Positions 11,120 through 63,633 of a stretch of 64,000 nt of DNA are shown in pieces. The first letter of the stretch is position 1. Every line of letters begins with the position of its first letter. Both the position numbers and the translations under genes were made by a program. A model generated the notes under the pieces. It was given only the letters and a program-made list of their open reading frames with translations, had not been told where the DNA came from and made no database searches. Source of the stretch: Planctomycetota bacterium (GTDB taxonomy: Bacteria > Planctomycetota > UBA1135 > JAKEFM01); contig JAKEFM010000003.1 in the NCBI GenBank assembly GCA_022616055.1, positions 1-64,000 on the forward strand. Direction: 5' to 3'.

Positions 11120-12985
11120 CTACAGGAACAACTTGTCGATGTCGTTCCAGGTGACGAACAGGACGAGGCCCCCGATGACGACCAGCCCCGCCACCTGGGC
11201 GATCGTGAGCGCCCGCTCGCTCAGGGGGGAGCCCTTCACCTTCTCGATGGCGAGGAAGAGGAGGTGCCCCCCGTCGAGGAGGGGGATCGGGAGGAGGTTG
11301 ATCAGCGCGAGGTTGACGCTGAGGACGCCGAGGAAGAAGAGGAACTTCGCGAAGGAGATCTGGGTGAACCGGTAGGAGAAGCTCACGATCGAGACGATCC
11401 CCGAGAGGTTCGTCGCGGACATCTCGCGCCGCACCATGCGCCGGATGGCGAGGGCGAAGTTCTGGACCTCCCCGAACGTCGCCCTCCACCCTAGGGCGCA
11501 GGCCGAGGCGAGACCCGAGGCGCGCACGACGTGCGTCGCCGGACGCGGCTGGAGGCCGTACTCGGGCTCCGTGCGGCGCACCGGCTCGATCCGGATCGGG
11601 TCGAGCCGCCTCCCGTCCCGCTCGACCTCGAGGCGGATCGGGTTCGATCCGGCGCGGGAGATCGCCGCGAAGATCTCCTCCCAGCGCTCGACCGGCTTGC
11701 CGTCGATCGAGGCGATCCGGTCGCCCGGCTGGATCCCGGCCCGCTCCGCGGGGAGCCCCGGGATCGGGACGACCCGGGTTCCGTCGCTCCCGAGCGCGAG
11801 AGCCTCGATGAGGCGAGCACGCGCGCGGGGGGTCGGCGCCGGCTGCTCGACCGTGTAGCGCCCGCCTCCCTCCCGCTCGAAGGCGAGGACGAGGGACGGG
11901 TCGGTCGAGGCGCGCGCGGCCCTCCGGTCCGGGTCCCCGGGGATCTTTCGGCCGTCGATCTCGAGGAGGCGATCCCCCTCGCGGATGGGGGCGTCGCGGA
12001 GGGGCTCGCGGACCGCCCGGACCCTCGCCAGGAAGGGGGCGATCCCGACCTGGAAGCCCTTTGTCTCGCGCTTCCGCGGCTGGACCTCGATCTCGAGGGT
12101 CGACGGGGGAACGCCGTCCTTCCCGTCGCGGAGCACCCGCAGGCGCAGCGGCTCGCCTCCGCGGGTCGCTCGCGCGAGCTCGTCGAGGAGCCCGGAGAGG
12201 ACCCCTTCCCCCGCGACGTCGTTGAGGGAGACGAGCCGGTCCCCGGACCGAAGCCCCGCGAGGAACGCCGGGCTCCCGTCCTCGACGTCGATCCGGTGCT
12301 CCCGGTCGGCGGCGTGATTCACCTGGATCACGCGGAAGCCCTGCTCGGGATCCCATTCGGGGTAGACCTCGACGTCCTTCTCGACCTCGACCCCCTCCTC
12401 TCCCCCGGGCACCCGCACGCGCATCCGCAGCGGCCGCCCCTCGCCGGAGTCCGCGAGGGCGACGACCGCGCGGATCTGCTCGAAGGAATAGATCGGGGTC
12501 TCGTTGATCGAGAGGATGCGGGTCCCGGGGTCGATCCCGGCCCGCCAGGCCGGCCCGCCGGGGGCGGTCTCCCCGACGAGGGGCTCGAGGAAGGGGACCC
12601 CCGCGGCGAAGAGGATCGGGAAGAGGACCAGGGTGAGGAGGGCGTTGAAGGCGATCCCGGCGAGGAAGATCGCGGCGCGCCACCGCGCCTTCTTCGAGGC
12701 GAGCTCGTCGGGAGCCCTCGTCCCCTCGCCTCCCGGCGACTCCCCGGCGAGCTTCACGTACCCGCCGAGGGGGACCGCCGAGACGCGGTAGTCCGTCGGG
12801 CCCCGCTTCCAGCCGAGGAGCCTCGGCCCGAAGCCGAGGGAGAAGGTCTCGACGCGCACCCCCGCGAGCCTCGCCACGACGTAGTGCCCGAACTCGTGGA
12901 AGAGGATCAGGAAGCTCACCCCGAAGAGGACCTCGAGGAAGCCGAGGCTGAAGACGACCTCGAAGATCGAGCGCAGGGCGCTCAC
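11120..12985 (-). CDS. rseP: Site-2 (RseP-type) intramembrane zinc metalloprotease with extra PDZ domains
   Basis: A 621-residue inner-membrane protease that cuts transmembrane segments of substrates such as anti-sigma factors. The first span carries the zinc site HEFGH (His30, Glu31, His34). The last part has NLLPIPLLDGGHLLF, whose LDGG Asp is the third ligand, and a final span. Between them lie four PDZ-like modules recognised by their GDRI/L-x-S/x-I/L-x-x-x cores: GTRILSINETPIY, GDRLVSLNDVAG, GDRLLEIDGRKIPG and GDRIASIDGKPVER. Escherichia coli RseP has two and about 450 residues. The GTG start overlaps the dxr stop as GTGA. The dxr-rseP pair is a known conserved order. Confidence 0.88.
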   Translation of the reverse strand: MSALRSIFEVVFSLGFLEVLFGVSFLILFHEFGHYVVARLAGVRVETFSLGFGPRLLGWKRGPTDYRVSAVPLGGYVKLAGESPGGEGTRAPDELASKKARWRAAIFLAGIAFNALLTLVLFPILFAAGVPFLEPLVGETAPGGPAWRAGIDPGTRILSINETPIYSFEQIRAVVALADSGEGRPLRMRVRVPGGEEGVEVEKDVEVYPEWDPEQGFRVIQVNHAADREHRIDVEDGSPAFLAGLRSGDRLVSLNDVAGEGVLSGLLDELARATRGGEPLRLRVLRDGKDGVPPSTLEIEVQPRKRETKGFQVGIAPFLARVRAVREPLRDAPIREGDRLLEIDGRKIPGDPDRRAARASTDPSLVLAFEREGGGRYTVEQPAPTPRARARLIEALALGSDGTRVVPIPGLPAERAGIQPGDRIASIDGKPVERWEEIFAAISRAGSNPIRLEVERDGRRLDPIRIEPVRRTEPEYGLQPRPATHVVRASGLASACALGWRATFGEVQNFALAIRRMVRREMSATNLSGIVSIVSFSYRFTQISFAKFLFFLGVLSVNLALINLLPIPLLDGGHLLFLAIEKVKGSPLSERALTIAQVAGLVVIGGLVLFVTWNDIDKLFL

Positions 12986-53586: not shown

Positions 53587-55842
53587 TCACTTCTCCCGGA
53601 GCGCGATCGCCCCGAGATCCCTCACCTCTCCCGCGGACTCCAGGACGACCTCCATCGAGCGGCGCCGGAGCCCCGATTCGACGGCGAGGGTGAAGCGGCG
53701 CGCAGCGGGGAGCCCCCCCACGTCGAAGGAACCGTCCTGGCCGGAGCGCGCCCGGGCGAGGACCTGTACTGGCGGACAGTACGCGGTCACGTGGGCGCCC
53801 GGGATCGCCTCGCCGCGGTCGTCCACCGCCCGACCGCGAAGGCGACATTCAGGCTCGAGTTCGATCACGACCAGGCTCTCCTCCTCGTGGGGCTCGGGTC
53901 GGCGTGCGACCTCGGCCCATGCGTGGCGAGGCGCCGTGACCTCGAAGCCGGCCGTCTGTCTGGGTGCCGGACCGTAGCGGAACCCTCCGTCCGCGTCCGT
54001 CACGAACGTCGTCGGCTGGTACCACTTGGACCCGGCGTAGACCACCTCGACCCGGGCGCCGGCGACTGGGAGCCCCGTCGTACGCGAGCGAACGGTTCCG
54101 GCGAAAACCACCGGTCTTGTCGCGAGACAGAGGTCGCATTCCACTTCCGCGGCCTCGGGAATCTCGATCTCGCGCGCTTCGAGGAAGCCGGCGTGCATCG
54201 TCGCCACGCTCCAGACGCCGGGGGAGCAGAGCTGGTGGTAATACCGTCCCTCGGCGTCCGTCACCGCCTTGTTAGATTCTCTCGAGCGCGACTCGCGGTA
54301 GTCCCAGTACGCCTTCGCCGCCGCGCCGAGGACCGGATTCACGTACGGGACGCTGCGCGGGCCGTCGATCAGGACGGCGGCGCTAGGGACCGGCCGACCC
54401 TCGGCGTCGACGACCCGACCCTTCAGCCGGGGGAGCTCCTCCGGACGGGGAAGGCGGACCGTGAGGTCGTCCCGCGACTTCTGGACCTCGTGATGCCAGT
54501 AGGCGAGGACCGGTAGGTGCCCTTCCGCCTCGACGAGGAGATCCACCCCCGCGAGGTGGTCCGGGATCGGGCCGCCAAACGTCCCGTCCGGGCCGGCCAT
54601 CGCGACGAAGATCTGGGCCTCGATCCTCCTCGGCTCCTCCTCCCCGAGGACGAAATCGTCGCTGCGCGCGAACACCCGGGCTCCGGGAATGGTGCGATCC
54701 CCGAAGACTTCGACGACGCGCCCCTGGATCTCCCTCGGCCGATCGAGGAGGAGCATGACGTCCGAGATCTCGAAAGGGAGCGCGGAGACGCGGTCCGTAC
54801 GCCTCCCCGGCCAGGAGAGGAGGCCGTCCTTCGACGCCTCGATCCGGAGCGTCAGGGGTGGGGAGGATTCCCCCGCCTCTGCGCTGAGGTGGAAGGTTCC
54901 GCCGGCCCCGCTCTCCGTGGAGCCGAGTTCCTTCCCCGTCTCGAGCGCGACCAGCCGCACGTGGGCGCGCGCGACGGGATTGCCTCCCCTCTCCAGCACA
55001 GATCCGCGATAGCGAACGGCGCTCGAGCGCTCCCCCTGAGGTTGGGACTCAGGGGCCTGGACCCTGCTCGATTCGAGGGAGGATCTCGTCGGACTCGGCG
55101 ACTCCACCGCGGGCTCCGGGAAACGCGCGAGGATCTCCGGCACAGAGGGGAGTGCGGAGGATCGGGCAACCTCGGGGGCCGGGGACGGAGACTCCGGCCA
55201 GAAGGAGACCCCGAGGCCGATCAGCAGGGCGGCGGATATCGCAACCTTTGCACTCACGCTCATGGCTACGCCTCCGGCGAGGGCCCCGACGATTCCCGCC
55301 TTGGGAGCCGCGAACGGCGCGAGCGCCGCGCACCACGCCGGGCGGTCGCCTCCCCACTCGCGGTCGAGCCGTGCCCTCAATCGTGCGAGGCCGCGCTTCA
55401 GGCGCGTCCGGGCCGTCTCCACCGGCACGGCCAGTCTCTTCGCGATCGCCCGCGGCGGGAGGTCCTCGTAGAAGCGCAGGATCACCGCGGAGCGGTAGGG
55501 CTCCTCCAGCGCGAGCACCGCGTCCACGACCCGGCTGCGGGCCTCCTCGCGCGCGACGATCTCGTGGGTCGAGGGGACCGCTTCGGGGTGAGCCGCCGCC
55601 CTCTCCCGTCGTGCGCGCCGGGCGTCCGCGCGCGCGAACCGACGGGCGAAGTTGCGAAGGACGGTGAGCAGCCAGCCCCGCGGGGCCTCCGCCGACCCCG
55701 GGGGATGCTCCAGGACCGCGACCCAGGTCTCCTGCTCCAGGTCTTCCGCCCGGCCGGCGTCGCGGATGAGCGTGCGCGCCAGCGCCCGGACGAAGTCGGC
55801 GTCCGCGAGGAGGGCCCGAGGGTCGAGGGGAGCCCGCTCCAT
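53587..55842 (-). CDS. ECF sigma factor fused through one membrane span to an exported Ig-repeat domain
   Basis: A 751-residue single polypeptide. Residues about 10-75 are sigma region 2 (RAEDLEQETWVAVLEHP and GWLLTVLRNFARRFAR), and 104-160 are region 4 with the helix-turn-helix ILRFYEDLPPRAIAKRLAVP-VETARTRLKRGL. A conserved AWCAALAP follows at 169-176. Residues about 198-215 (KVAISAALLIGLGVSFW) are a membrane span with basic residues on the sigma side, so the rest is outside the inner membrane. From 260 on come carboxypeptidase-regulatory-like beta modules (GSVLERGGNPVARAHVRL, GRVVDAEGRPVPSAAVLI, GRAVDDRGEAIPGAHV). ATG at 55842; a TTG five codons earlier is possible. ECF proteins with long C-terminal membrane extensions are known from planctomycetes (ECF01-Gob type). 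Confidence 0.85.
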   Translation of the reverse strand: MERAPLDPRALLADADFVRALARTLIRDAGRAEDLEQETWVAVLEHPPGSAEAPRGWLLTVLRNFARRFARADARRARRERAAAHPEAVPSTHEIVAREEARSRVVDAVLALEEPYRSAVILRFYEDLPPRAIAKRLAVPVETARTRLKRGLARLRARLDREWGGDRPAWCAALAPFAAPKAGIVGALAGGVAMSVSAKVAISAALLIGLGVSFWPESPSPAPEVARSSALPSVPEILARFPEPAVESPSPTRSSLESSRVQAPESQPQGERSSAVRYRGSVLERGGNPVARAHVRLVALETGKELGSTESGAGGTFHLSAEAGESSPPLTLRIEASKDGLLSWPGRRTDRVSALPFEISDVMLLLDRPREIQGRVVEVFGDRTIPGARVFARSDDFVLGEEEPRRIEAQIFVAMAGPDGTFGGPIPDHLAGVDLLVEAEGHLPVLAYWHHEVQKSRDDLTVRLPRPEELPRLKGRVVDAEGRPVPSAAVLIDGPRSVPYVNPVLGAAAKAYWDYRESRSRESNKAVTDAEGRYYHQLCSPGVWSVATMHAGFLEAREIEIPEAAEVECDLCLATRPVVFAGTVRSRTTGLPVAGARVEVVYAGSKWYQPTTFVTDADGGFRYGPAPRQTAGFEVTAPRHAWAEVARRPEPHEEESLVVIELEPECRLRGRAVDDRGEAIPGAHVTAYCPPVQVLARARSGQDGSFDVGGLPAARRFTLAVESGLRRRSMEVVLESAGEVRDLGAIALREK

Positions 55843-55886
55843 GTCCGTACGCCACCACAAGCCCGGACGGACCGGAAGCGGTTCGG
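55843..55886 (-). promoter_or_regulatory. Conserved block before the first sigma fusion
   Basis: The minus-strand sequence directly before the ATG begins CCGAACCG and contains TTGTGGTGGCGTAC. The same block stands before the second fusion with the first element at the same distance of 37 bases from the A of ATG. GAACC is like the -35 of ECF promoters (GGAAC), and 16 bases further is GGCTTG. Autoregulation is a reasonable guess. Part of the block could also be coding. Confidence 0.45.
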
Positions 55887-55898
55887 CCCCGAGGCTCC

Positions 55899-58064
55899 CT
55901 AGAAGATTTGCCCGATGATCAGGAAGGCGGCCTTCTCCCCGTTCTCGGCGAGGCCGTAGCCGAGGTAGACCGGCCCGATCGGCGTCGCGAGTCCCGCGAA
56001 GGCGCTGCCGGCGAAGATGATCGAGTGGCTGTTCGTCGTGTCCCACCCGTCCCAGACCCCCCCCGCCTCGAACGAGCCTCCGAGGTAGACCCCCCCCATC
56101 TTGCGGTAGGTGATCAGGGAGGCGACCCCCCCTTCGGGGCCGGCGCGGGCGGTACCGCCGAGGCCGGTGAGACGGAAGAGGCCGCCGACGGCGAAGGCCT
56201 CGGGGACCTGCGTCTCGCCTCCCGTCTCGAACTGGAGGGAGGAGAGGAGGCCGACCGATTGGCCCGCGACCGTGGCGACGGCGTACCCCCCGACGTCGAC
56301 GACTTCGAAGTCCTCGTCCGCGCCGAGGGACTCGAAGCGCCGCTTCCACTTCGCCAGGGCCCGCACGCCCGACGTGGGGAAGATCGAGGCATTGAGGGTG
56401 TCGATCTCGAGGCTCGCGTGCAGCCCGTTGTCGTCGAAGTCCCCCTCGATCGAGGGGTGGACGTCGTCGAAGTCGAGGTCCCCCGCCTGGAAGTCGATGC
56501 CGAAGCGCAGCTCCGACCATCCCCCGAGGTGAGCGCCGGCGTCGAGCCGCCCTCCTCCGCGCTGGACGATCGCGTCGGTCTGGACGCCCCCGATGTCCGC
56601 CCGGACCGGGAAACGCTCGTAGCCGATGGCCGGCGCCACGAAGAGGCGGCGGCTCGACTCGAGGGGCTGGAACCACTCGCTCGCGAACGAGGTGTTCGTC
56701 CCGAGCCTCACCGCCGTCCGCCACTCCGCGTCGGTCTCGCCGATCAGCGCGTGGGTGTAGTTGAGACCGAGCGTCAGGGCCCCCGCGCCGTCGAAATCGG
56801 TCGAGGTGTCGAACCCGAAGCGCAGGTATCCGGGCCCCCAGCTCTTCTCGTCCGCCTTGATCTCGAGGATGTGGCTGCCGTCCGGTTGTCGCAGCAGGCG
56901 GAAGCGGACCTTCTCGAAGAGGTCCGACCCGTAGACGCGCTCGAGGTCCTTCTGCAGCCGCAGGAGGTCGAGGGGCTCGCCGACCTTCGTGCGGAGGTGG
57001 GACGCGACCGCCGCCCGAGACACCGCGGAGGTCGTCTCGATCCGGATCTCGGCGAGGACGGGGAGCGGCTTCGCGGGGCGCCGCTGGCGGGAGCGCCACC
57101 GCTCGTACTCCTCCGGCGACACCGAGTAGCGCGACAGCTCCTCGGCGCGGCTTCGCGCGTACGCCTTCCCGATCGCGATGAGCTCCGCGGCGCGCACGAA
57201 GTCGGAGGTCGAGAGATGCCCCAGGTCCGGCCGGATGAGCAGGTCCTGGGGCCCGAGGGACTCGACCGCCTCCCTCACGGGCCTCTCGAGCAGGATCGAG
57301 AACATCTGGGATGTGATCCCGAAAAGGTCGTTGATCTCCTCGCGCTTCAAGGGAGGCGTCCCGATGTCGACGGCGATCAGGCGCGCGGCCCCCATGGCGC
57401 GCGCGGCGTCGACCGGCAGGTTGTCGACGAGGAATCCGTCGACCAGCAGTCGATCTCCCCACTCGACGGGGGCGAAGATCCCCGGCAGCGACATGCTCGA
57501 GCGCATCGCGAGCGGCAGGTCGCCACGGTCGAACATGACCCGGCTCCCGTCCGCGATGTTCGTCGACACGCAGCGGAACGGGATCGGGAGGTCGTCGAAG
57601 GAGGCGAGGTCGTGGGCCTCGAGCGCGAGCTGGTCGAGGACGAGGCCGAGGTTCTGACCCTGGATCAGGCCCTTCGGCAGCGCGATCTTCCCGTCGCGCA
57701 CGCCGACCCGGGCCTGGACGAGGAAGTCGTACTCCTCCTGCTTGCGGCGGATCGTGAGGTCGGCCCGCCTCGGGAAGTCCTGCAGGATGTAGGGCCAGTC
57801 GACCGAGAGGACCCACCGCTCGATCTCCTCGGGGGCGAGTCCGTAGGCGTAGAGCCCGCCGACGATCGAGCCCATGCTCGTGCCGGCGATGCAGTCGACC
57901 GGCACGCGCAACTCCTCAAGGACCTCGAGGACGCCGATGTGCGCGAGGCCGCGCGCGCCTCCCCCGCTGAGGACGAGCCCGACACGCGGCCGGGGCTGAG
58001 TCTGCTGTGCGGGCAGGGCTGTCGCGACGAGCGCGCCGGAGAGGCCGAGGGGGAGGAGGAACAT
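55899..58064 (-). CDS. Patatin-POTRA-barrel protein (PlpD/type Vd-like)
   Basis: A 721-residue outer membrane protein. Signal peptide at 1-20. Patatin domain about 25-320: oxyanion GGGARGLAHIGVLE (from 34), nucleophile Ser63 in GTSMGS, and catalytic Asp209 in LLVDGFLVDNLPVD. Then a POTRA-like domain (about 345-420: IETTSAVSRAAVASHLRTKV, RVYGSDLFEKVRFRLL) and a BamA/FhaC-type 16-strand barrel to the C-terminal Phe (LIIGQIF). This is the PlpD plan, in which the barrel exports its own lipase. It lies between the two sigma fusions, same strand, 56 and 83 bases from them. TAGACT ends eight bases before its ATG. Confidence 0.87.
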   Translation of the reverse strand: MFLLPLGLSGALVATALPAQQTQPRPRVGLVLSGGGARGLAHIGVLEVLEELRVPVDCIAGTSMGSIVGGLYAYGLAPEEIERWVLSVDWPYILQDFPRRADLTIRRKQEEYDFLVQARVGVRDGKIALPKGLIQGQNLGLVLDQLALEAHDLASFDDLPIPFRCVSTNIADGSRVMFDRGDLPLAMRSSMSLPGIFAPVEWGDRLLVDGFLVDNLPVDAARAMGAARLIAVDIGTPPLKREEINDLFGITSQMFSILLERPVREAVESLGPQDLLIRPDLGHLSTSDFVRAAELIAIGKAYARSRAEELSRYSVSPEEYERWRSRQRRPAKPLPVLAEIRIETTSAVSRAAVASHLRTKVGEPLDLLRLQKDLERVYGSDLFEKVRFRLLRQPDGSHILEIKADEKSWGPGYLRFGFDTSTDFDGAGALTLGLNYTHALIGETDAEWRTAVRLGTNTSFASEWFQPLESSRRLFVAPAIGYERFPVRADIGGVQTDAIVQRGGGRLDAGAHLGGWSELRFGIDFQAGDLDFDDVHPSIEGDFDDNGLHASLEIDTLNASIFPTSGVRALAKWKRRFESLGADEDFEVVDVGGYAVATVAGQSVGLLSSLQFETGGETQVPEAFAVGGLFRLTGLGGTARAGPEGGVASLITYRKMGGVYLGGSFEAGGVWDGWDTTNSHSIIFAGSAFAGLATPIGPVYLGYGLAENGEKAAFLIIGQIF

Positions 58065-58072
58065 GGCGCGCG

Positions 58073-58078
58073 AGTCTA
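58073..58078 (-). promoter_or_regulatory. Candidate -10 element of the patatin-barrel gene
   Basis: TAGACT ends eight bases before the ATG at 58064, identical to the element before the IMPase-like gene. GGAACC, which is like an ECF -35, overlaps this region at about 58087-58092 on the minus strand, but its spacing to the start is short. Confidence 0.35.
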
Positions 58079-58147
58079 CTGTCGAGGGGTTCCCCCGGGC
58101 GACCTCGACGGCGTGGGAAGGGCGGCGACGGAGTGGCGGCCGGCCCG

Positions 58148-61100
58148 TCAGGGGATCTCGACGTCGACCTCCGGCCGTTCCCCGACTTCGATCGCGACCT
58201 CCTGCTCCCGCGGCTGCCCGCCCGGGGCCTCGACCCGTATGCGGTAATTCCCGGGGAGAAGCGTGGGATAGAGCCTCCCGTTCGTGCGACCATGGAGCGC
58301 ATAGGCCACCCGACCCGCGCTGTCCCGGATCTCCATGCGCACGGCCGTCTCCCCGATCGACACCCGCGCGCTCCGGAGGCGAACGTGGAGGCTCACGGCC
58401 GGCACGGCGTCGACGTCGTAGCGGATCTCTTCCTCCCCCTCGGGGACGTCGAGGTGGACCGGATGTCCCGAGGGGAGGTAGGGCCCGCCCCAGAGACGGA
58501 CGCGGTGCTTCCCCGGCCGGAATCCCGTCAGCCGGTACGAGCGGTCCTTCCCCAGATGGGTGCTCGGGCCATCTCTCTCGCCCTCCCGGCGGAATCCGAG
58601 TTCGAACTCCCCGTCCGCGGGCAGGCCCCGGACGAACCCCCGGACCGTCACCCCCCTGTCGAGGGACACGGCGATCGGATCGGGAGGGCTCCCCGGAGTC
58701 ACCGCGATCCCGGCTCGCTCCCAGGGAGCGAAACCCTCGGAGGTCACGCGCAGCGTCCACGTTCCGGCGGGCGCCTTGACCCTGAATCGGCCCGGCGCGG
58801 GCTTCTCGCCCTTCACGACGCGACTCCCATCCGAGAGCTCTACCTCGAAGTCGAGGAAGGGAGCGCCGCTCTCGGCGTCCCGCACCGTCCCCTCGACCGT
58901 CGCCGCGGCTGCGTCTTCCTCCTCCCCGGCCGGTACGCGGATGACGACGTCCTCCGCGTCCGTCCGGACGCCGGTCAGGACGGCGCGAACCTCCGACTCG
59001 TCCTCCTTCTTCCGCGGCCTCTTCCAGAGAGCGACCAGGGTGTAGGGGCCCTCGGGGAGGTCGCGGGCCTCGAAGGAGCCGTCCTCGCCCGAGATGGCGC
59101 TCCCGTAGACGCGCGGCCCGGGGAGGCCGGCGGCGTCCCCTCGGTCTCCCCGCTCGACCCTCGCGGCGGCGATCTGCCCGGTCGGGATCGCCGGATTCAC
59201 GACGTAGAGGGGGACGTCACGGGCCGGAGCGCCGTCCGGGAGGAGGACCCTGCCGGCCACTCGATGTCCGGGGGCGAGGACCACCCGGACTTCCGGGGGA
59301 TTCTCCGCCGAGGGGACGACGTCCGGCGTGCGGACGGGGCGGTATCCCGGCGCGCGGACGACCAGCCTCCTCGGATCGCGCTTCTCCCCCTCCTCCAGGA
59401 GCTGGAAGAAAACGCGGAGCCGCCCGTCCTCGCCGGTGACCGCCATGTCGATCGGATCGGGTCCCGAGGGCATCGCCCCTCCGACCGGGCGGCCCTGCTC
59501 GTCCACGACGACGAGGTCGATCGCCGGATCGGTCTTGAGGAGGATGTCGGCGACTTCCGTCTCCTCCCCCGCGCGGAGGGTCGCCCCGAGCTGCGAGCTC
59601 GTGCTCCCCGAGCCCTTCGCGCGAGCGAGGATCGTCACGCGGGAGGCGCTCGGGCTCGCCGGGATGTCGGAGATCGCGAATCGGCCCGCCGCATCCGTCA
59701 CGTCCGAGGGGTACCCGAGTCCAACGATCTCGAGCGAGGAGGCCTGCCGCCCCCGTTCGTGGCAGAAGGCGAGGACCGAGACCCCGGGGATCGGCGTTCC
59801 CCTCCCATCGACGACCCTTCCCCGGACCTTCGCGGAGCGCCACAGCCTCACGGTCGAGTCTGTGGCTTCCCCGTCCTTGACGTGGAGGACCTCATCGGAC
59901 CCCTCGGCGTAGCCCGCGGCCCTCGCCGTCACGAATCCGAGGATCGGCCCGCGCCGCCCGTGGACGTCGGTGCCGCGACGATGGAATCCCGCCGCCGGGA
60001 GATGTTCGATCCCGAAGGTGCCGTCGGCGGCGGAGACCCCCTCGGCGAGAAGGTGCGGATTCCAGGGACTCTGGATGTGCCTTCCGCCCAGGGAGAAGCT
60101 CCCGGTCCCGTCCCACCCCCACAGCCGCACCGTCGCACCAGCGATCGGGGAATCGCTCTCCGCTTCGACGACCCGGCCGCGGAGCGTCGCGCCGCGGATC
60201 AGGACGAGGTCGTGGCGAGCGCTCCCCTCCGTCTCGGGGGAGACGGGAGACCCGATCCGCAGGGGAGCGAAGCCGGCCGCCTCGACGTCGAGCGACCACG
60301 CCAGGCCCATGCCCGTCCCCTCCGTGGCGCGGGGGGAAGGGATCCCCTCGATCCGGTAGGAGCCGTCGGGACCCGAGACGGTCTGCCGCTCGACCTGCGC
60401 GCTGGCGAGGAGGCCCAGCCAGCGGATCCGGGCGCCCGCGACCGTGCGTCCCTCCCGGTCCGCGACGGTGCCAACGAAGGCACGGGCAGGGTCGAGGACG
60501 AGCCGGACGTCCCCTCCGGGCCGGAGCGAGGTCGCGATCTTCGGAGAGAACCCATCCGCCTCGACGAGGACGCTGAAGTAGGTCGACCTCCCCCCGAGCG
60601 GGACCTCGAACCGTCCCTTCGTGTCGGTCTCGGTCCTCTGGACCGGATCCGACTCCGGGTCGGGGGACAATCGGACCGCGCGTCCCAGGCTCTCCGGGTA
60701 GGAGAAGACGCGCGCGCCCCCGACCGGACGACCCCCCCGGTCGACGACGATGCCCGAGGCCCGGGGGCCTTCCTCTCCCAGCGGCCGGCGTTCGGCGCCG
60801 GGGGGGTTCGCCTGGTCCCGTTCGATTCCCACCTCCGGGGCGACCGCCAGCCTCGCATCCGCACTCGACGAGGGGCCGGGAGCGGCACCGACCTCGAGCA
60901 CGCGCGCGACCTGCGGCGGCGAAACCGAGCCCTCCGGCCAGAACGCGATGGAGAGTCCGAGGAGGAGGGCGGCGGCGATCGAGACCTTCGCGCCCGTCTT
61001 CATGGCGACGATTCCTCCCGCGAGGGCTCCCGGGAGCCCCGACTTCCTTGCCAGGAGCGGCGCGAGCGCCGCGCACCACGCCGAGCGGTCCCCGCCCCAC

Positions 61101-61585
61101 TCCCCGTCGAGCCGCGCTCGCAGCTGCGCGAGTCCGCGCTTGATCCTCGTCCGGGCGGTCTCGACGGGGACAGCGAGCCTCCTCGCGATCGCCCGCGGCG
61201 GGAGGTCCTCGTAGAAGCGCAGCACGATCGCCGACCGGTAGGGCTCCTCGAGGGCGAGCACGGCCTCGACGACCCGGCGGCGCGACTCCTCGCGGGCAAC
61301 GATGTCGTGGGACGAGGGGACCGGCTCGGGGCGCGCCGCCGCGCTCTCCCACCGTGTTCGACGGATCTCCGCGCGAGAGAGCCGGCGCGCGAGGTTGCGC
61401 AGGACGGTGAGGAGCCACCCGCGCGAGGACTCGACCGTCCGGGGGGGATGCTCCAGGGTCGCGACCCAGGTCTCCTGCGCGAGGTCGTCCGCCCTCGCCG
61501 CGTCGTGGACGAGGGTGCGCGCGAGGGCCCGGACGAAGTCCGCGTGCGCGAGCAGCGCTTGGGGATCGGGGGGGACGCGCCCCAT
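58148..61585 (-). CDS. ECF sigma factor fused to a very large exported Ig-repeat domain (paralogue)
   Basis: An 1145-residue paralogue of the fusion at 53587-55842. The sigma half is the same: region 2 with RADDLAQETWVATLEHP and GWLLTVLRNLARRLSR, region 4 with VLRFYEDLPPRAIARRLAVP and ETARTRIKRGL, then AWCAALAP and the span KVSIAAALLLGLSIAFW near 199-216. The exported half is longer, about 900 residues with eight or more carboxypeptidase-regulatory-like modules (GIVVDRGGRPVGGARVFS, GTVADREGRTVAGARIRW, GRVVEAESDSPIAGATVRL, GRVVDGRGTPIPGVSVLA, GRVLLPDGAPARDVPLYV). Over the first 176 residues the two agree at about 78% (hand count); the exported parts do not align by eye. ATG at 61585; a TTG five codons earlier is possible. 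Confidence 0.85.
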   Translation of the reverse strand: MGRVPPDPQALLAHADFVRALARTLVHDAARADDLAQETWVATLEHPPRTVESSRGWLLTVLRNLARRLSRAEIRRTRWESAAARPEPVPSSHDIVAREESRRRVVEAVLALEEPYRSAIVLRFYEDLPPRAIARRLAVPVETARTRIKRGLAQLRARLDGEWGGDRSAWCAALAPLLARKSGLPGALAGGIVAMKTGAKVSIAAALLLGLSIAFWPEGSVSPPQVARVLEVGAAPGPSSSADARLAVAPEVGIERDQANPPGAERRPLGEEGPRASGIVVDRGGRPVGGARVFSYPESLGRAVRLSPDPESDPVQRTETDTKGRFEVPLGGRSTYFSVLVEADGFSPKIATSLRPGGDVRLVLDPARAFVGTVADREGRTVAGARIRWLGLLASAQVERQTVSGPDGSYRIEGIPSPRATEGTGMGLAWSLDVEAAGFAPLRIGSPVSPETEGSARHDLVLIRGATLRGRVVEAESDSPIAGATVRLWGWDGTGSFSLGGRHIQSPWNPHLLAEGVSAADGTFGIEHLPAAGFHRRGTDVHGRRGPILGFVTARAAGYAEGSDEVLHVKDGEATDSTVRLWRSAKVRGRVVDGRGTPIPGVSVLAFCHERGRQASSLEIVGLGYPSDVTDAAGRFAISDIPASPSASRVTILARAKGSGSTSSQLGATLRAGEETEVADILLKTDPAIDLVVVDEQGRPVGGAMPSGPDPIDMAVTGEDGRLRVFFQLLEEGEKRDPRRLVVRAPGYRPVRTPDVVPSAENPPEVRVVLAPGHRVAGRVLLPDGAPARDVPLYVVNPAIPTGQIAAARVERGDRGDAAGLPGPRVYGSAISGEDGSFEARDLPEGPYTLVALWKRPRKKEDESEVRAVLTGVRTDAEDVVIRVPAGEEEDAAAATVEGTVRDAESGAPFLDFEVELSDGSRVVKGEKPAPGRFRVKAPAGTWTLRVTSEGFAPWERAGIAVTPGSPPDPIAVSLDRGVTVRGFVRGLPADGEFELGFRREGERDGPSTHLGKDRSYRLTGFRPGKHRVRLWGGPYLPSGHPVHLDVPEGEEEIRYDVDAVPAVSLHVRLRSARVSIGETAVRMEIRDSAGRVAYALHGRTNGRLYPTLLPGNYRIRVEAPGGQPREQEVAIEVGERPEVDVEIP

Positions 61586-61813: not shown

Positions 61814-62152
61814 ATGCTGCCTCGAATTTGCAGGATCCCGGAGCGGCGGTCGTGCCGCCTCCTCGGACCTCGCCAGACGGGGAAGAGCTCCCTCCTCACC
61901 GGCCTCCTCCCCCGCCGGGCGTGGACCGGCGACCTCCCCTTCGAGCGCCACGGCCGCCTGCGGCTCGCCGCCGAGATCAAGGCGAAGCGCCACGTCGTGG
62001 GGGCCGACGTCGAGGGGCTGCGCTCCTTAGCCGAGGCCCACCCGGGGGACCCTCGCGCCGTCGTCGCCCTCGTCCCCGAACCCTACCGGTTCGAGGGGGT
62101 GGAAGTTCTCCCCTTCGCGCGGTTCTTCGAGCGGCTCGGGGAGCGACTCTAG
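61814..62152 (+). pseudogene. Remnant of a DUF4143-type AAA ATPase with an internal deletion
   Basis: The 112 codons are open but join two ends of a normally 370-400-residue ATP-binding protein. Residues 10-30 give ERRSCRLLGPRQTGKSSLL, the N-terminal strand and Walker A of the family. At about residue 36 the sequence jumps to the C-terminal DUF4143 end (GDLPFERHGRLRLAAEIKAK, then RHVVGADVEGLRSLAEAHPG and VALVPEPYRFEGVEVLPFARF). Walker B, sensor and most of the C-terminal domain are missing, so it cannot hydrolyse ATP normally. The start with its palindrome and the end (shared CTAG stop with speB) both look intact, which points to a clean in-frame deletion. Confidence 0.7.
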
Positions 62153-63069
62153 GGGTTCTTCTTCCCGCGCACGACCGACCCGATCGCGCGGTAGACGAGC
62201 CGGGCCGTCAGGAACTCGCAGGCGTGGAGCCCCGGCCGCGGCATCAGCTCGACGAAGTCCATCGCGACGATCCGGCGGGCGCGGGCGGCGGCGTCGATGA
62301 TCCGGAGGACGGGTTCCCAGAGGAGCCCCCCGGGCTCGGGCGTGCCCGTGGCGGGCATCAAGGAGGAGTCGAACCCGTCGACGTCGAAGGAGAGGTAGAT
62401 CGGGTCGGGGAGGCAGGAGGCGATCGCCGAGGGGAGGGCGTCGCCGAAGGAGGCAAGGTCGTGAGCGTAGAAGGTGAGGCACTCCCCCGCCGGCGGCTTC
62501 TCGACGGCGCCGGGCCGCGCGCGGCGGGTGATCGCCGCCTCCTCGGAGGAGAGGCTGCGGACCCCGACCTGGACGATCGCGACCTTCTCCTCGAGGACGC
62601 GGCGCATCACGCAGCCGTGGCCGTAGTTCGTCCCCTCGTACTCGTCGCGGAGGTCCCCGTGGGCGTCGAAGTGGAGGACGCCGACGGTCGGGAAGGCGCG
62701 CTTCACGGCGCGGAGAGGGCCGAGGGTGATCGAGTGCTCGCCCCCGAGGATCACGGGAACCTGGCCGCGGCCCAGGATCTCCCCCACCTTCTTCTCGAGG
62801 GCGGGGGCGAGGGCTTCGGGCGGGCCAGGGAACGGGAACGGAGGGAGCGTGGTGATCCCGGCCTCGTAGGGCTCGTCTTCCCCCCGCTCGTCGTAGAGCT
62901 CGACCTGGGCCGAGGCGGTGAGGATCGCGGCGGGCCCCTGCGCGGTCCCCTGCGCGTAGGTCGTCGTCTTCTCGTAGGGGACCGGGAGGACGGCGAAGCG
63001 GGCGCGGGCCGGGTCGCAGGCGGGGGGCTCGAGGCCGAGGAAGGCCCCCTCGGGCGGGAAGGAGGACAC
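62149..63069 (-). CDS. speB: Agmatinase
   Basis: A 306-residue ureohydrolase that splits agmatine into putrescine and urea. Mn ligands are in place: His112 (GGEHS), Asp135, His137 and Asp139 (FDAHGDLRD), Asp229 and Asp231 (LSFDVDGFDSSLMPATGTPEPGG). The residues fit the agmatinase pattern better than arginase or formiminoglutamase. GTG start three bases after the arginine decarboxylase stop, so the two steps arginine-agmatine-putrescine are in one operon. It converges with the ATPase remnant and shares CTAG. Confidence 0.92.
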   Translation of the reverse strand: MSSFPPEGAFLGLEPPACDPARARFAVLPVPYEKTTTYAQGTAQGPAAILTASAQVELYDERGEDEPYEAGITTLPPFPFPGPPEALAPALEKKVGEILGRGQVPVILGGEHSITLGPLRAVKRAFPTVGVLHFDAHGDLRDEYEGTNYGHGCVMRRVLEEKVAIVQVGVRSLSSEEAAITRRARPGAVEKPPAGECLTFYAHDLASFGDALPSAIASCLPDPIYLSFDVDGFDSSLMPATGTPEPGGLLWEPVLRIIDAAARARRIVAMDFVELMPRPGLHACEFLTARLVYRAIGSVVRGKKNP

Positions 63070-63072
63070 GGC

Positions 63073-63633
63073 TCAGCCGACGAGGACCGCGGCGGCGAGC
63101 ACGGTCGTCCACCAGCCGTTCTTCGCGCCCTGCGCGGTCTGGGTGATGTTCGTCGTCCGGTAGATCCGGTTCGAGATCTTCCAGAGGGCCTTGCGCTCGT
63201 CGTAGGAGGCGTCCGCGTCGTAGTCGACGCCGAGGACCGTGCAGAGCATCGAGGCGGCGAGGTCCTCCGCGTACTCCCCCGCCGATTCCTCGTCCTCCCC
63301 GTAGGAGTGGTGCTCGGAGAGGTAGCCGTACATCGCCGGGTCCTTCGGGATCGCGAGGCCGATCGAGGAGGAGATGAGGCGCCGGTTCTCGTTCGTCTCG
63401 CTGCGGGCCATCACGGAGAAGGTGACCTGCCCCGCCCGCATCTTCTTCAGCCCCTTCTCGATCGGGATCAGCTTGCAGTAGGGAGGGAAGATGCTCGAGA
63501 CGGAGACGAGGTTGTAGCAGGCGATCCGGGCCTTGCGCAGCGCCATCTCGAAGGAGGTGAGCCGCTCCTTGTGGATGCCCACCCCTTTCGTGAGGAAGAT
63601 CTCCCTCGCGGTGAATGGATTGCCTTCGGCCAT
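63073..63633 (-). CDS. Pyruvoyl-dependent arginine decarboxylase
   Basis: A 186-residue proenzyme that decarboxylates arginine to agmatine. It cleaves itself between Ser46 and Ser47 (NLVSVSSIFPPYCK), and Ser47 becomes the pyruvoyl group. GVGIHKERLTSFEMALRKA and GQVTFSVMARSETNENRR, EHHSYGEDEESAGEYAEDLA are typical of the PvlArgDC family. Normal length is 155-200. A strong promoter 71 bases upstream and the agmatinase three bases downstream make a two-gene putrescine operon. ATG start; the leader of about 65 bases is longer than in most genes here. Confidence 0.92.
   Translation of the reverse strand: MAEGNPFTAREIFLTKGVGIHKERLTSFEMALRKARIACYNLVSVSSIFPPYCKLIPIEKGLKKMRAGQVTFSVMARSETNENRRLISSSIGLAIPKDPAMYGYLSEHHSYGEDEESAGEYAEDLAASMLCTVLGVDYDADASYDERKALWKISNRIYRTTNITQTAQGAKNGWWTTVLAAAVLVG

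What the first reader, a model, noticed from the sequence alone, without database searches (positions are those of the whole stretch)
53587..61585. Two one-protein transmembrane signalling systems: ECF sigma factor, membrane span and exported sensor in one chain
Both genes encode an intact sigma region 2 and 4, one membrane span near residue 200 and a large exported stretch of Ig-like modules. There is no separate anti-sigma factor gene. The sigma domain would be held at the membrane and needs cleavage to act on DNA far from it, or acts while tethered. Exported C-terminal ECF extensions are known in planctomycetes, but their signals and targets are mostly undescribed.
Basis: partly seen in the sequence, partly recalled or inferred. 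Interest (0 to 1): 0.82.

Follow-up and report, generated by a model that had tools for sequence, protein, structure and literature searches.

The report
Membrane sigma-factor genes with hidden start
These two genes belong to a large Planctomycetota family whose proteins join a gene-switching sigma factor to a membrane anchor and an exported arm in one chain, and most members carry a hidden second start signal inside the gene that should also make the anchored arm without the sigma factor, which would be a new way to tune such a sensor.

Summary
Gene A (53587-55842, 751 aa) and gene B (58148-61585, 1145 aa) each encode intact sigma regions 2 and 4, one membrane helix near residue 200, and exported CarboxypepD_reg beta-sandwich repeats. 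They are two of at least 15 paralogs in this genome; the family occurs in 35 of 149 sampled Planctomycetota genomes, often in many copies.

(1) Most members carry an in-frame start codon just before the helix, often with a Shine-Dalgarno GGAG at -12. The glycine codon forming it is GGA in 70 of 82 members with a start codon, against 19 of 97 glycines in members without one and about 16% elsewhere. Two independent sets of 58 members confirm it. These genes probably make two products: sigma-anchor-arm, and the anchored arm alone.

(2) Many members share an ECF-type promoter, TGAACCG-N13-CGG(G/C)AT, suggesting auto- or cross-regulation.

No anti-sigma gene or domain accompanies the 15 paralogs. 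Release of sigma by proteolysis is inferred, not shown. Related kinds are known (IutY, ECF48/52/53), but those carry an anti-sigma part, and I found no report of an internal start.

The parts
53587..55842 (-). Gene A: ECF sigma - membrane helix - exported CarboxypepD_reg repeats, 751 aa
55860..55885 (-). Gene A promoter-like site CGAACCG-N13-CGGGCT (family motif TGAACCG-N13-CGGSAT)
55618..55797 (-). Gene A sigma region 2 (residues 16-75)
55378..55533 (-). Gene A sigma region 4 (residues 104-155)
55309..55353 (-). Gene A conserved juxtamembrane linker motif GGDRPAWCAALAPFA (residues 164-178), predicted short helix
55271..55275 (-). Gene A internal Shine-Dalgarno GGAGG (begins 12 bases before the internal ATG)
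55261..55263 (-). Gene A internal start codon ATG (Met194); short product of 558 aa
55204..55257 (-). Gene A membrane helix (residues 196-213)
53590..55197 (-). Gene A exported part (residues 216-751): disordered stretch, then beta-sandwich repeats
58148..61585 (-). Gene B: same architecture, 1145 aa
61603..61628 (-). Gene B promoter-like site CGAACCG-N13-CGGGAT
61370..61549 (-). Gene B sigma region 2 (residues 13-72)
61121..61279 (-). Gene B sigma region 4 (residues 103-155)
61014..61018 (-). Gene B internal Shine-Dalgarno GGAGG (begins 15 bases before the internal ATG)
61001..61003 (-). Gene B internal start codon ATG (Met195); short product of 951 aa
60938..60994 (-). Gene B membrane helix (about residues 198-216)
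58151..60934 (-). Gene B exported part (about residues 218-1145), CarboxypepD_reg repeats

Best explanation
Genes A and B are members of a Planctomycetota-wide, highly multiplied family of self-contained transmembrane ECF sigma systems. The sigma part sits in the cytosol, a single helix crosses the membrane, and a stack of CarboxypepD_reg beta-sandwiches is exported. Transcription starts at an ECF-type promoter (TGAACCG-N13-CGGGAT) close before the sigma start, most simply recognised by the family's own sigma parts. Translation starts twice in one frame: at a sigma start with little Shine-Dalgarno, and at an internal Shine-Dalgarno/ATG just before the helix. This gives full-length sigma-anchor-arm and a sigma-less anchor-arm. 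On a signal to the exported part, sigma is most likely released by regulated proteolysis (site-2/RseP type) and activates its own gene and perhaps few others; the sigma-less form sets the ratio of arm to sigma. Shown by sequence: architecture, family spread, absence of an anti-sigma gene, selection for the internal start, shared promoter motif. Inferred: that both products exist in cells, autoregulation, proteolytic release, and the role of the short form.
For: Architecture in both genes and in 15 paralogs and 207 of 215 sampled members. No zf-HC2 gene near the 15 paralogs although 24 matches exist in the genome. Internal start: first set 35 of 51 with a Shine-Dalgarno 4-mer against 9.6 expected from synonymous redraws; order set 21 of 58 against 7.9, maximum 15 of 300; phylum set GGAG exactly at -12 in 19 members against 0.2 per other offset; GGA glycine codon 70 of 82, against 19 of 97 in members lacking a start codon; GTG replaces ATG in some members and keeps GGAG at -12 (5 of 6); predicted mRNA structure weakest at the site. 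Promoter: same motif found independently in other genomes. An M50 site-2-type protease is encoded in the window.
Against: No expression, proteomic or cleavage data. About 22% of members (45 of 207) have no start codon at the site and many of the rest no Shine-Dalgarno (16 of 44 have it in the order set), so the internal start is common but not universal. The promoter matches poorly in 4-6 of the 15 paralogs, and few matches lie before family genes in relatives under a strict pattern. M50 proteases occur in all control genomes, so presence says little.
Confidence: 0.62

Rival explanations
1. The sigma part acts while tethered. No cleavage occurs; a signal through the helix frees it to bind RNA polymerase at the membrane, as the membrane-bound regulators ToxR and CadC do (from own knowledge).
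For: No recognisable anti-sigma domain to be degraded; the linker is short and conserved; no cleavage site is evident.
Against: The characterised fused membrane ECF, IutY, is activated by proteolysis (PMC8999054). A long disordered stretch follows the helix in the AlphaFold model, residues about 214-269, which would suit a first protease cut.
Confidence: 0.25
2. The internal Shine-Dalgarno only slows elongating ribosomes so that the helix can be targeted to the membrane; no second product is made.
For: Shine-Dalgarno-like pauses help targeting of membrane proteins in E. coli (PMC4359368).
Against: The GGA codon is preferred only where a start codon follows at the right spacing (70 of 82 against 19 of 97), and GTG can replace ATG. 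In E. coli the pauses lie at codons 16-60 or before the second helix, and proteins with 80 or more residues before the first helix did not show the codon 16-36 enrichment.
Confidence: 0.08
3. The internal start is a relic of a past fusion between a sigma gene and a downstream secreted-protein gene, with no present use.
For: The site looks like an ordinary gene start with a signal anchor (M-K/S-x-x-x-K-hydrophobic); soluble sigma relatives exist.
Against: Kept at the level of single bases and codon choice across many families of the phylum at sigma identities of about 40-50%; a relic would have decayed.
Confidence: 0.06
4. The exported arm is the product that matters, a surface or envelope protein, and the attached sigma part reports on its own export and adjusts the arm's expression. 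The sigma-less form would be the bulk product.
For: The repeats resemble pilin and adhesin-type stacks; the internal start is stronger than the sigma start in 68 of 97 genes; arms vary while sigma cores are conserved.
Against: It does not explain why every arm keeps its own sigma in many paralogs rather than sharing one.
Confidence: 0.2

Closest known systems
[quoted passage not shown]
   Same: One chain: ECF sigma, membrane span and outside part; shown to be activated by proteolysis (Prc, RseP).
   Different: IutY's extension is a fused anti-sigma factor in an iron-starvation cell-surface signalling system. Here Pfam finds no anti-sigma domain, only a ~30-residue linker, then CarboxypepD_reg repeats; these are many-copied and carry an internal start.
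ECF48, ECF52 (SCO4117) and ECF53 of Actinobacteria (PMC8999054)
   Same: Sigma with a C-terminal extension holding one or two membrane helices and an outside part; expected to be released by proteolysis.
   Different: Those hold a zinc-finger (ZAS) anti-sigma domain and are actinobacterial; no such domain is found here.
ECF57 and other planctomycetal ECFs with C-terminal extensions (PMC8999054)
   Same: Planctomycetal host; large C-terminal extension; no anti-sigma gene.
   Different: ECF57 extensions are WD40-like repeats thought to act by protein interaction; here an exported CarboxypepD_reg stack.
Dual-start bacterial genes such as cheA, infB and clpB (own knowledge, not tested here)
   Same: One frame, two starts, the short form lacking the N-terminal domain.
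   Different: I know of none in an ECF sigma gene, nor one placed so that the short form begins exactly at its own membrane anchor.

Membership tests
ECF sigma factors (group IV sigma-70) | Sigma regions 2 and 4 without regions 1.1 and 3 | tested here: met
   Pfam Sigma70_r2 and Sigma70_r4_2 above cut-off, no other sigma region found; TIGR02937 above cut-off
ECF sigma factors (group IV sigma-70) | Promoter with AAC in the -35 and CGT in the -10 box (PMC8103513) | tested here: inconclusive
   GAACC found as -35; the -10 is CGG(G/C)AT, not plain CGT; recognition by this sigma not shown
ECF48/ECF52/ECF53 membrane-fused ECFs | Zinc-finger (ZAS) anti-sigma domain between sigma and membrane helix | tested here: not met
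   No zf-HC2 or other anti-sigma family in A, B or ten paralogs
ECF48/ECF52/ECF53 membrane-fused ECFs | C-terminal membrane helix with an outside part | tested here: met
IutY-type (ECF243) fusions | Fused anti-sigma factor of a cell-surface (TonB-linked) signalling system | tested here: not met
   No anti-sigma or TonB-linked domain in the proteins; no recurring neighbour gene
ECF57 | WD40-like repeats in the extension | tested here: not met
   PF13620 repeats instead
Groups of the 2021 ECF classification | Score above a group's model | not testable with these tools
   The group models are not in the libraries offered, and the paper is not held
Dual-start (two-product) genes | Conserved in-frame internal start codon with a properly spaced Shine-Dalgarno under selection | tested here: met
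Dual-start (two-product) genes | Both products present in cells | not testable with these tools
   No expression or proteomic data at hand
Regulated intramembrane proteolysis systems | Cleavage of the anchor by a site-2 protease releasing the cytosolic part | not testable with these tools
   M50 proteases exist in the genome, one in this window, but they are universal

The most novel reading that the evidence does not exclude
A phylum-wide class of signalling genes in which one frame encodes both a membrane-tethered sigma factor and, from an internal start placed exactly at the anchor, a sigma-less receptor. The sigma-less form is the more abundant one and gates the sigma-bearing form by co-assembly or competition, taking the place of an anti-sigma factor.
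Probability: 0.4. Interest if true: 0.86.

Novelty: new variant of a known kind. Interest (0 to 1): 0.76.

Why it matters
ECF sigma factors are normally held back by a separate or fused anti-sigma domain. Here is a many-copied family with no recognisable one, and with a hidden second start that uncouples receptor dose from sigma dose. It offers cheap, specific tests (change one base of the GGA or ATG), a predicted promoter to use as reporter, and a reason to reconsider the annotation of many planctomycetal genes as single products.

Tried and rejected
The stretch shared before A and B (read as LWWRTxM) was first considered N-terminal coding sequence; the same motif at constant distance before other paralogs showed it to be a promoter region. 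The exact word TTGTGGTGGCGTAC is not a genome-wide motif. A wider regulon was sought: of 11 matches with at most one mismatch in the genome 4 lie before family genes. Of the rest only one was looked at, which lies before a small membrane protein/LemA-like operon. In relatives the strict pattern is only modestly enriched over its control, so no regulon beyond the family is claimed. Conserved neighbours: none (largest cluster 7 loci). Sigma and membrane part as separate adjacent genes: none found; L108 and L118 are soluble sigma relatives followed by other DNA. Three classification or survey papers were not held. Literature searches for this architecture in Planctomycetes or for internal starts in sigma factors found nothing matching. 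Docking of the linker helix on sigma could not be inspected, because no coordinates are returned. Programmed frameshifting at the Shine-Dalgarno was considered and set aside: no slippery heptamer is evident in the sequences shown; not tested formally.

Full report
OBSERVATION. Gene A occupies 53587-55842 and gene B 58148-61585, both on the - strand, as open frames without a stop. Pfam places sigma regions 2 and 4 in the first 160 residues and CarboxypepD_reg repeats in the rest. NCBIfam recognises a generic ECF sigma. Hydropathy gives one membrane stretch in each, near residue 200. AlphaFold2 on a 91-member alignment gives the sigma helices at high confidence, a short helix 167-178, a low-confidence joint around 184-192 and the membrane helix 196-213. 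On full-length A it gives beta-sandwiches from about residue 275. Foldseek matches these to CNA-B, SdrD and pilin-type stacks, with low overall TM-scores.

FAMILY. The genome (5.78 Mb, 394 contigs) holds 15 close paralogs with open frames of about 780-1440 codons and one more distant likely member on C81. Nine of ten further paralogs scanned carry CarboxypepD_reg besides both sigma regions. In the same order 30 of 41 genomes have matches, up to 36 in one genome. Across the phylum 35 of 149 sampled genomes have matches at E below 1e-15. Named relatives are nearly all Planctomycetota, including the cultured strain Poly30, with a few hits outside (Paraliomyxa, a Binatia bin). Sigma cores are conserved while arms vary.

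NO ANTI-SIGMA. The genome has 24 zf-HC2 anti-sigma-type matches, several right beside other ECF genes (for example on C21, C179, C140, C76, C341), but none within several kilobases of the 15 paralogs. The distant C81 member has one about 1.7 kb away on the other strand. Between sigma4 and the helix there is only a short linker with a conserved motif, GGDRxAWxxALxPLA. No neighbour gene recurs strongly.

INTERNAL START, FIRST SET. A methionine stands just before the helix far more often than chance: in 51 of 91 members within four residues, against 7.5% of comparable windows. Upstream lies GGAG at a fixed distance. Of the 51, 35 have a Shine-Dalgarno 4-mer, against 9.6 expected when synonymous codons are redrawn (maximum 18 in 500 draws). 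Base frequencies at -12 to -9 are G 0.75, G 0.73, A 0.65, G 0.71, and pairing energy with the anti-Shine-Dalgarno exceeds that of other in-frame ATGs (p 4e-9). The 16S end GGATCACCTCCTGT was found in the genome.

INTERNAL START, INDEPENDENT SETS. I then fetched 58 new members from the order and 58 from other families of the phylum. In the order set, start plus Shine-Dalgarno occurs in 21 against 7.9 expected, maximum 15 of 300. GGAG sits exactly at -12 in 6 of 38 ATG and 5 of 6 GTG members, against 0.2 and 0.0 per other offset. In the phylum set it is at -12 in 19 members, against 0.2 elsewhere. The glycine codon four before the start is GGA in 32 of 38, 17 of 19 and 21 of 25 members of the three sets, against 15.7% elsewhere. 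In members without a start codon, glycines of the same region use GGA in only 19 of 97 cases. This coupling, and GTG in place of ATG, argue for translation initiation and against an elongation pause or a purely protein-level motif. One part of the test was weak: in the order set alone, Shine-Dalgarno presence in ATG against non-ATG members was not significant (p 0.2).

TWO PRODUCTS. Predicted mRNA folding is weakest at the site, though lower G+C there contributes. Anti-Shine-Dalgarno pairing is stronger at the internal start than at the sigma start in 68 of 97 genes, and in A and B clearly so (-9.5 and -10.0 against -4.9 kcal/mol). The frame stays open through the linker in nearly all members, so a full-length product is evidently kept too. 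I infer two products per gene. This rests on sequence selection only; no expression data were available.

PROMOTER. Before most of the 15 paralogs an ECF-like motif TGAACCG-N13-CGGGAT lies about 55-63 bases before the first sigma profile position. A search on 84 members from other genomes, without these, found the same motif and spacing. That matrix picks out the paralogs' upstream regions (combined p 6e-16, although 4-6 of 15 match poorly). It also scores above coding background in both further sets, with positions clustered at -52 to -63 (upstream and coding DNA differ in composition, so the clustering is the better evidence). In the whole genome 4 of 11 matches with at most one mismatch are before family genes. 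The likeliest meaning is auto- or cross-regulation. The distance to the sigma ATG implies a 5' leader of about ten bases (inference from usual -10 to start distances).

MECHANISM. Shown by sequence: architecture, selection for an internal start, shared promoter, absence of a recognisable anti-sigma. Inferred: transcription by the family's own sigma; both products in cells; a signal sensed by the exported stack; release by proteolysis, by analogy with IutY (Prc, RseP) and the expected mode of ECF48/52/53 (PMC8999054). An M50 protease is encoded in this window (11174-12928), but such proteases are universal. The sigma-less form could set receptor excess, co-assemble with, or compete with the sigma form. 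I put the internal-start claim at about 0.88, the promoter at 0.8, release by proteolysis at 0.55 and a gating role of the short form at 0.4.

PLACE AMONG THE KNOWN. It works like fused membrane ECFs but fails defining features of IutY and ECF48/52/53 (no anti-sigma domain) and of ECF57 (no WD40). Group assignment in the 2021 classification could not be tested. I call it a new variant of a known kind, with an internal start that I have not found described; the classification papers and much subscription literature were out of reach.

Noticed in passing
window 11174-12928 (-): An M50 (RseP-like) site-2 protease gene lies in the same window, one of about four in the genome.
   Followed up: partly
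L160:1501-2814 (genome C156:2699): The family's promoter motif stands about 27 bases before a small membrane-protein gene followed by a LemA-like gene (named from memory of the family); a possible target outside the family.
   Followed up: partly
window 55899-58154 (-): A patatin gene with a C-terminal Omp85-type barrel and a POTRA-like stretch lies between A and B.
   Followed up: no
window 61814-62152 (+): Short open frame with a Walker-A-like GPRQTGKSSLL and a C-terminal piece, looking like a shrunken ATPase gene on the opposite strand before gene B (not searched).
   Followed up: no
window 62149-63633 (-): Two adjacent genes look like agmatinase and pyruvoyl-dependent arginine decarboxylase (judged by eye only).
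   Followed up: no
L131 (Poly30, CP036434.1): The cultured strain Poly30 has two family members within 9 kb, both without a clear internal Shine-Dalgarno.
   Followed up: partly
L118 and L108: Sigma relatives that end in a stop without any membrane helix: soluble forms of the same sigma family.
   Followed up: partly
family alignment A3, residues 170 and 215 of A: Tryptophans are conserved in 76% of members both in the linker motif and at the outer end of the membrane helix; unexplained.
   Followed up: no
own genome, L190-L249 and L282-L350: Use of the internal Shine-Dalgarno differs between lineages: 9 of 11 start-bearing members in this genome, 16 of 44 in the order set, 34 of 45 in the phylum set.
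   Followed up: partly
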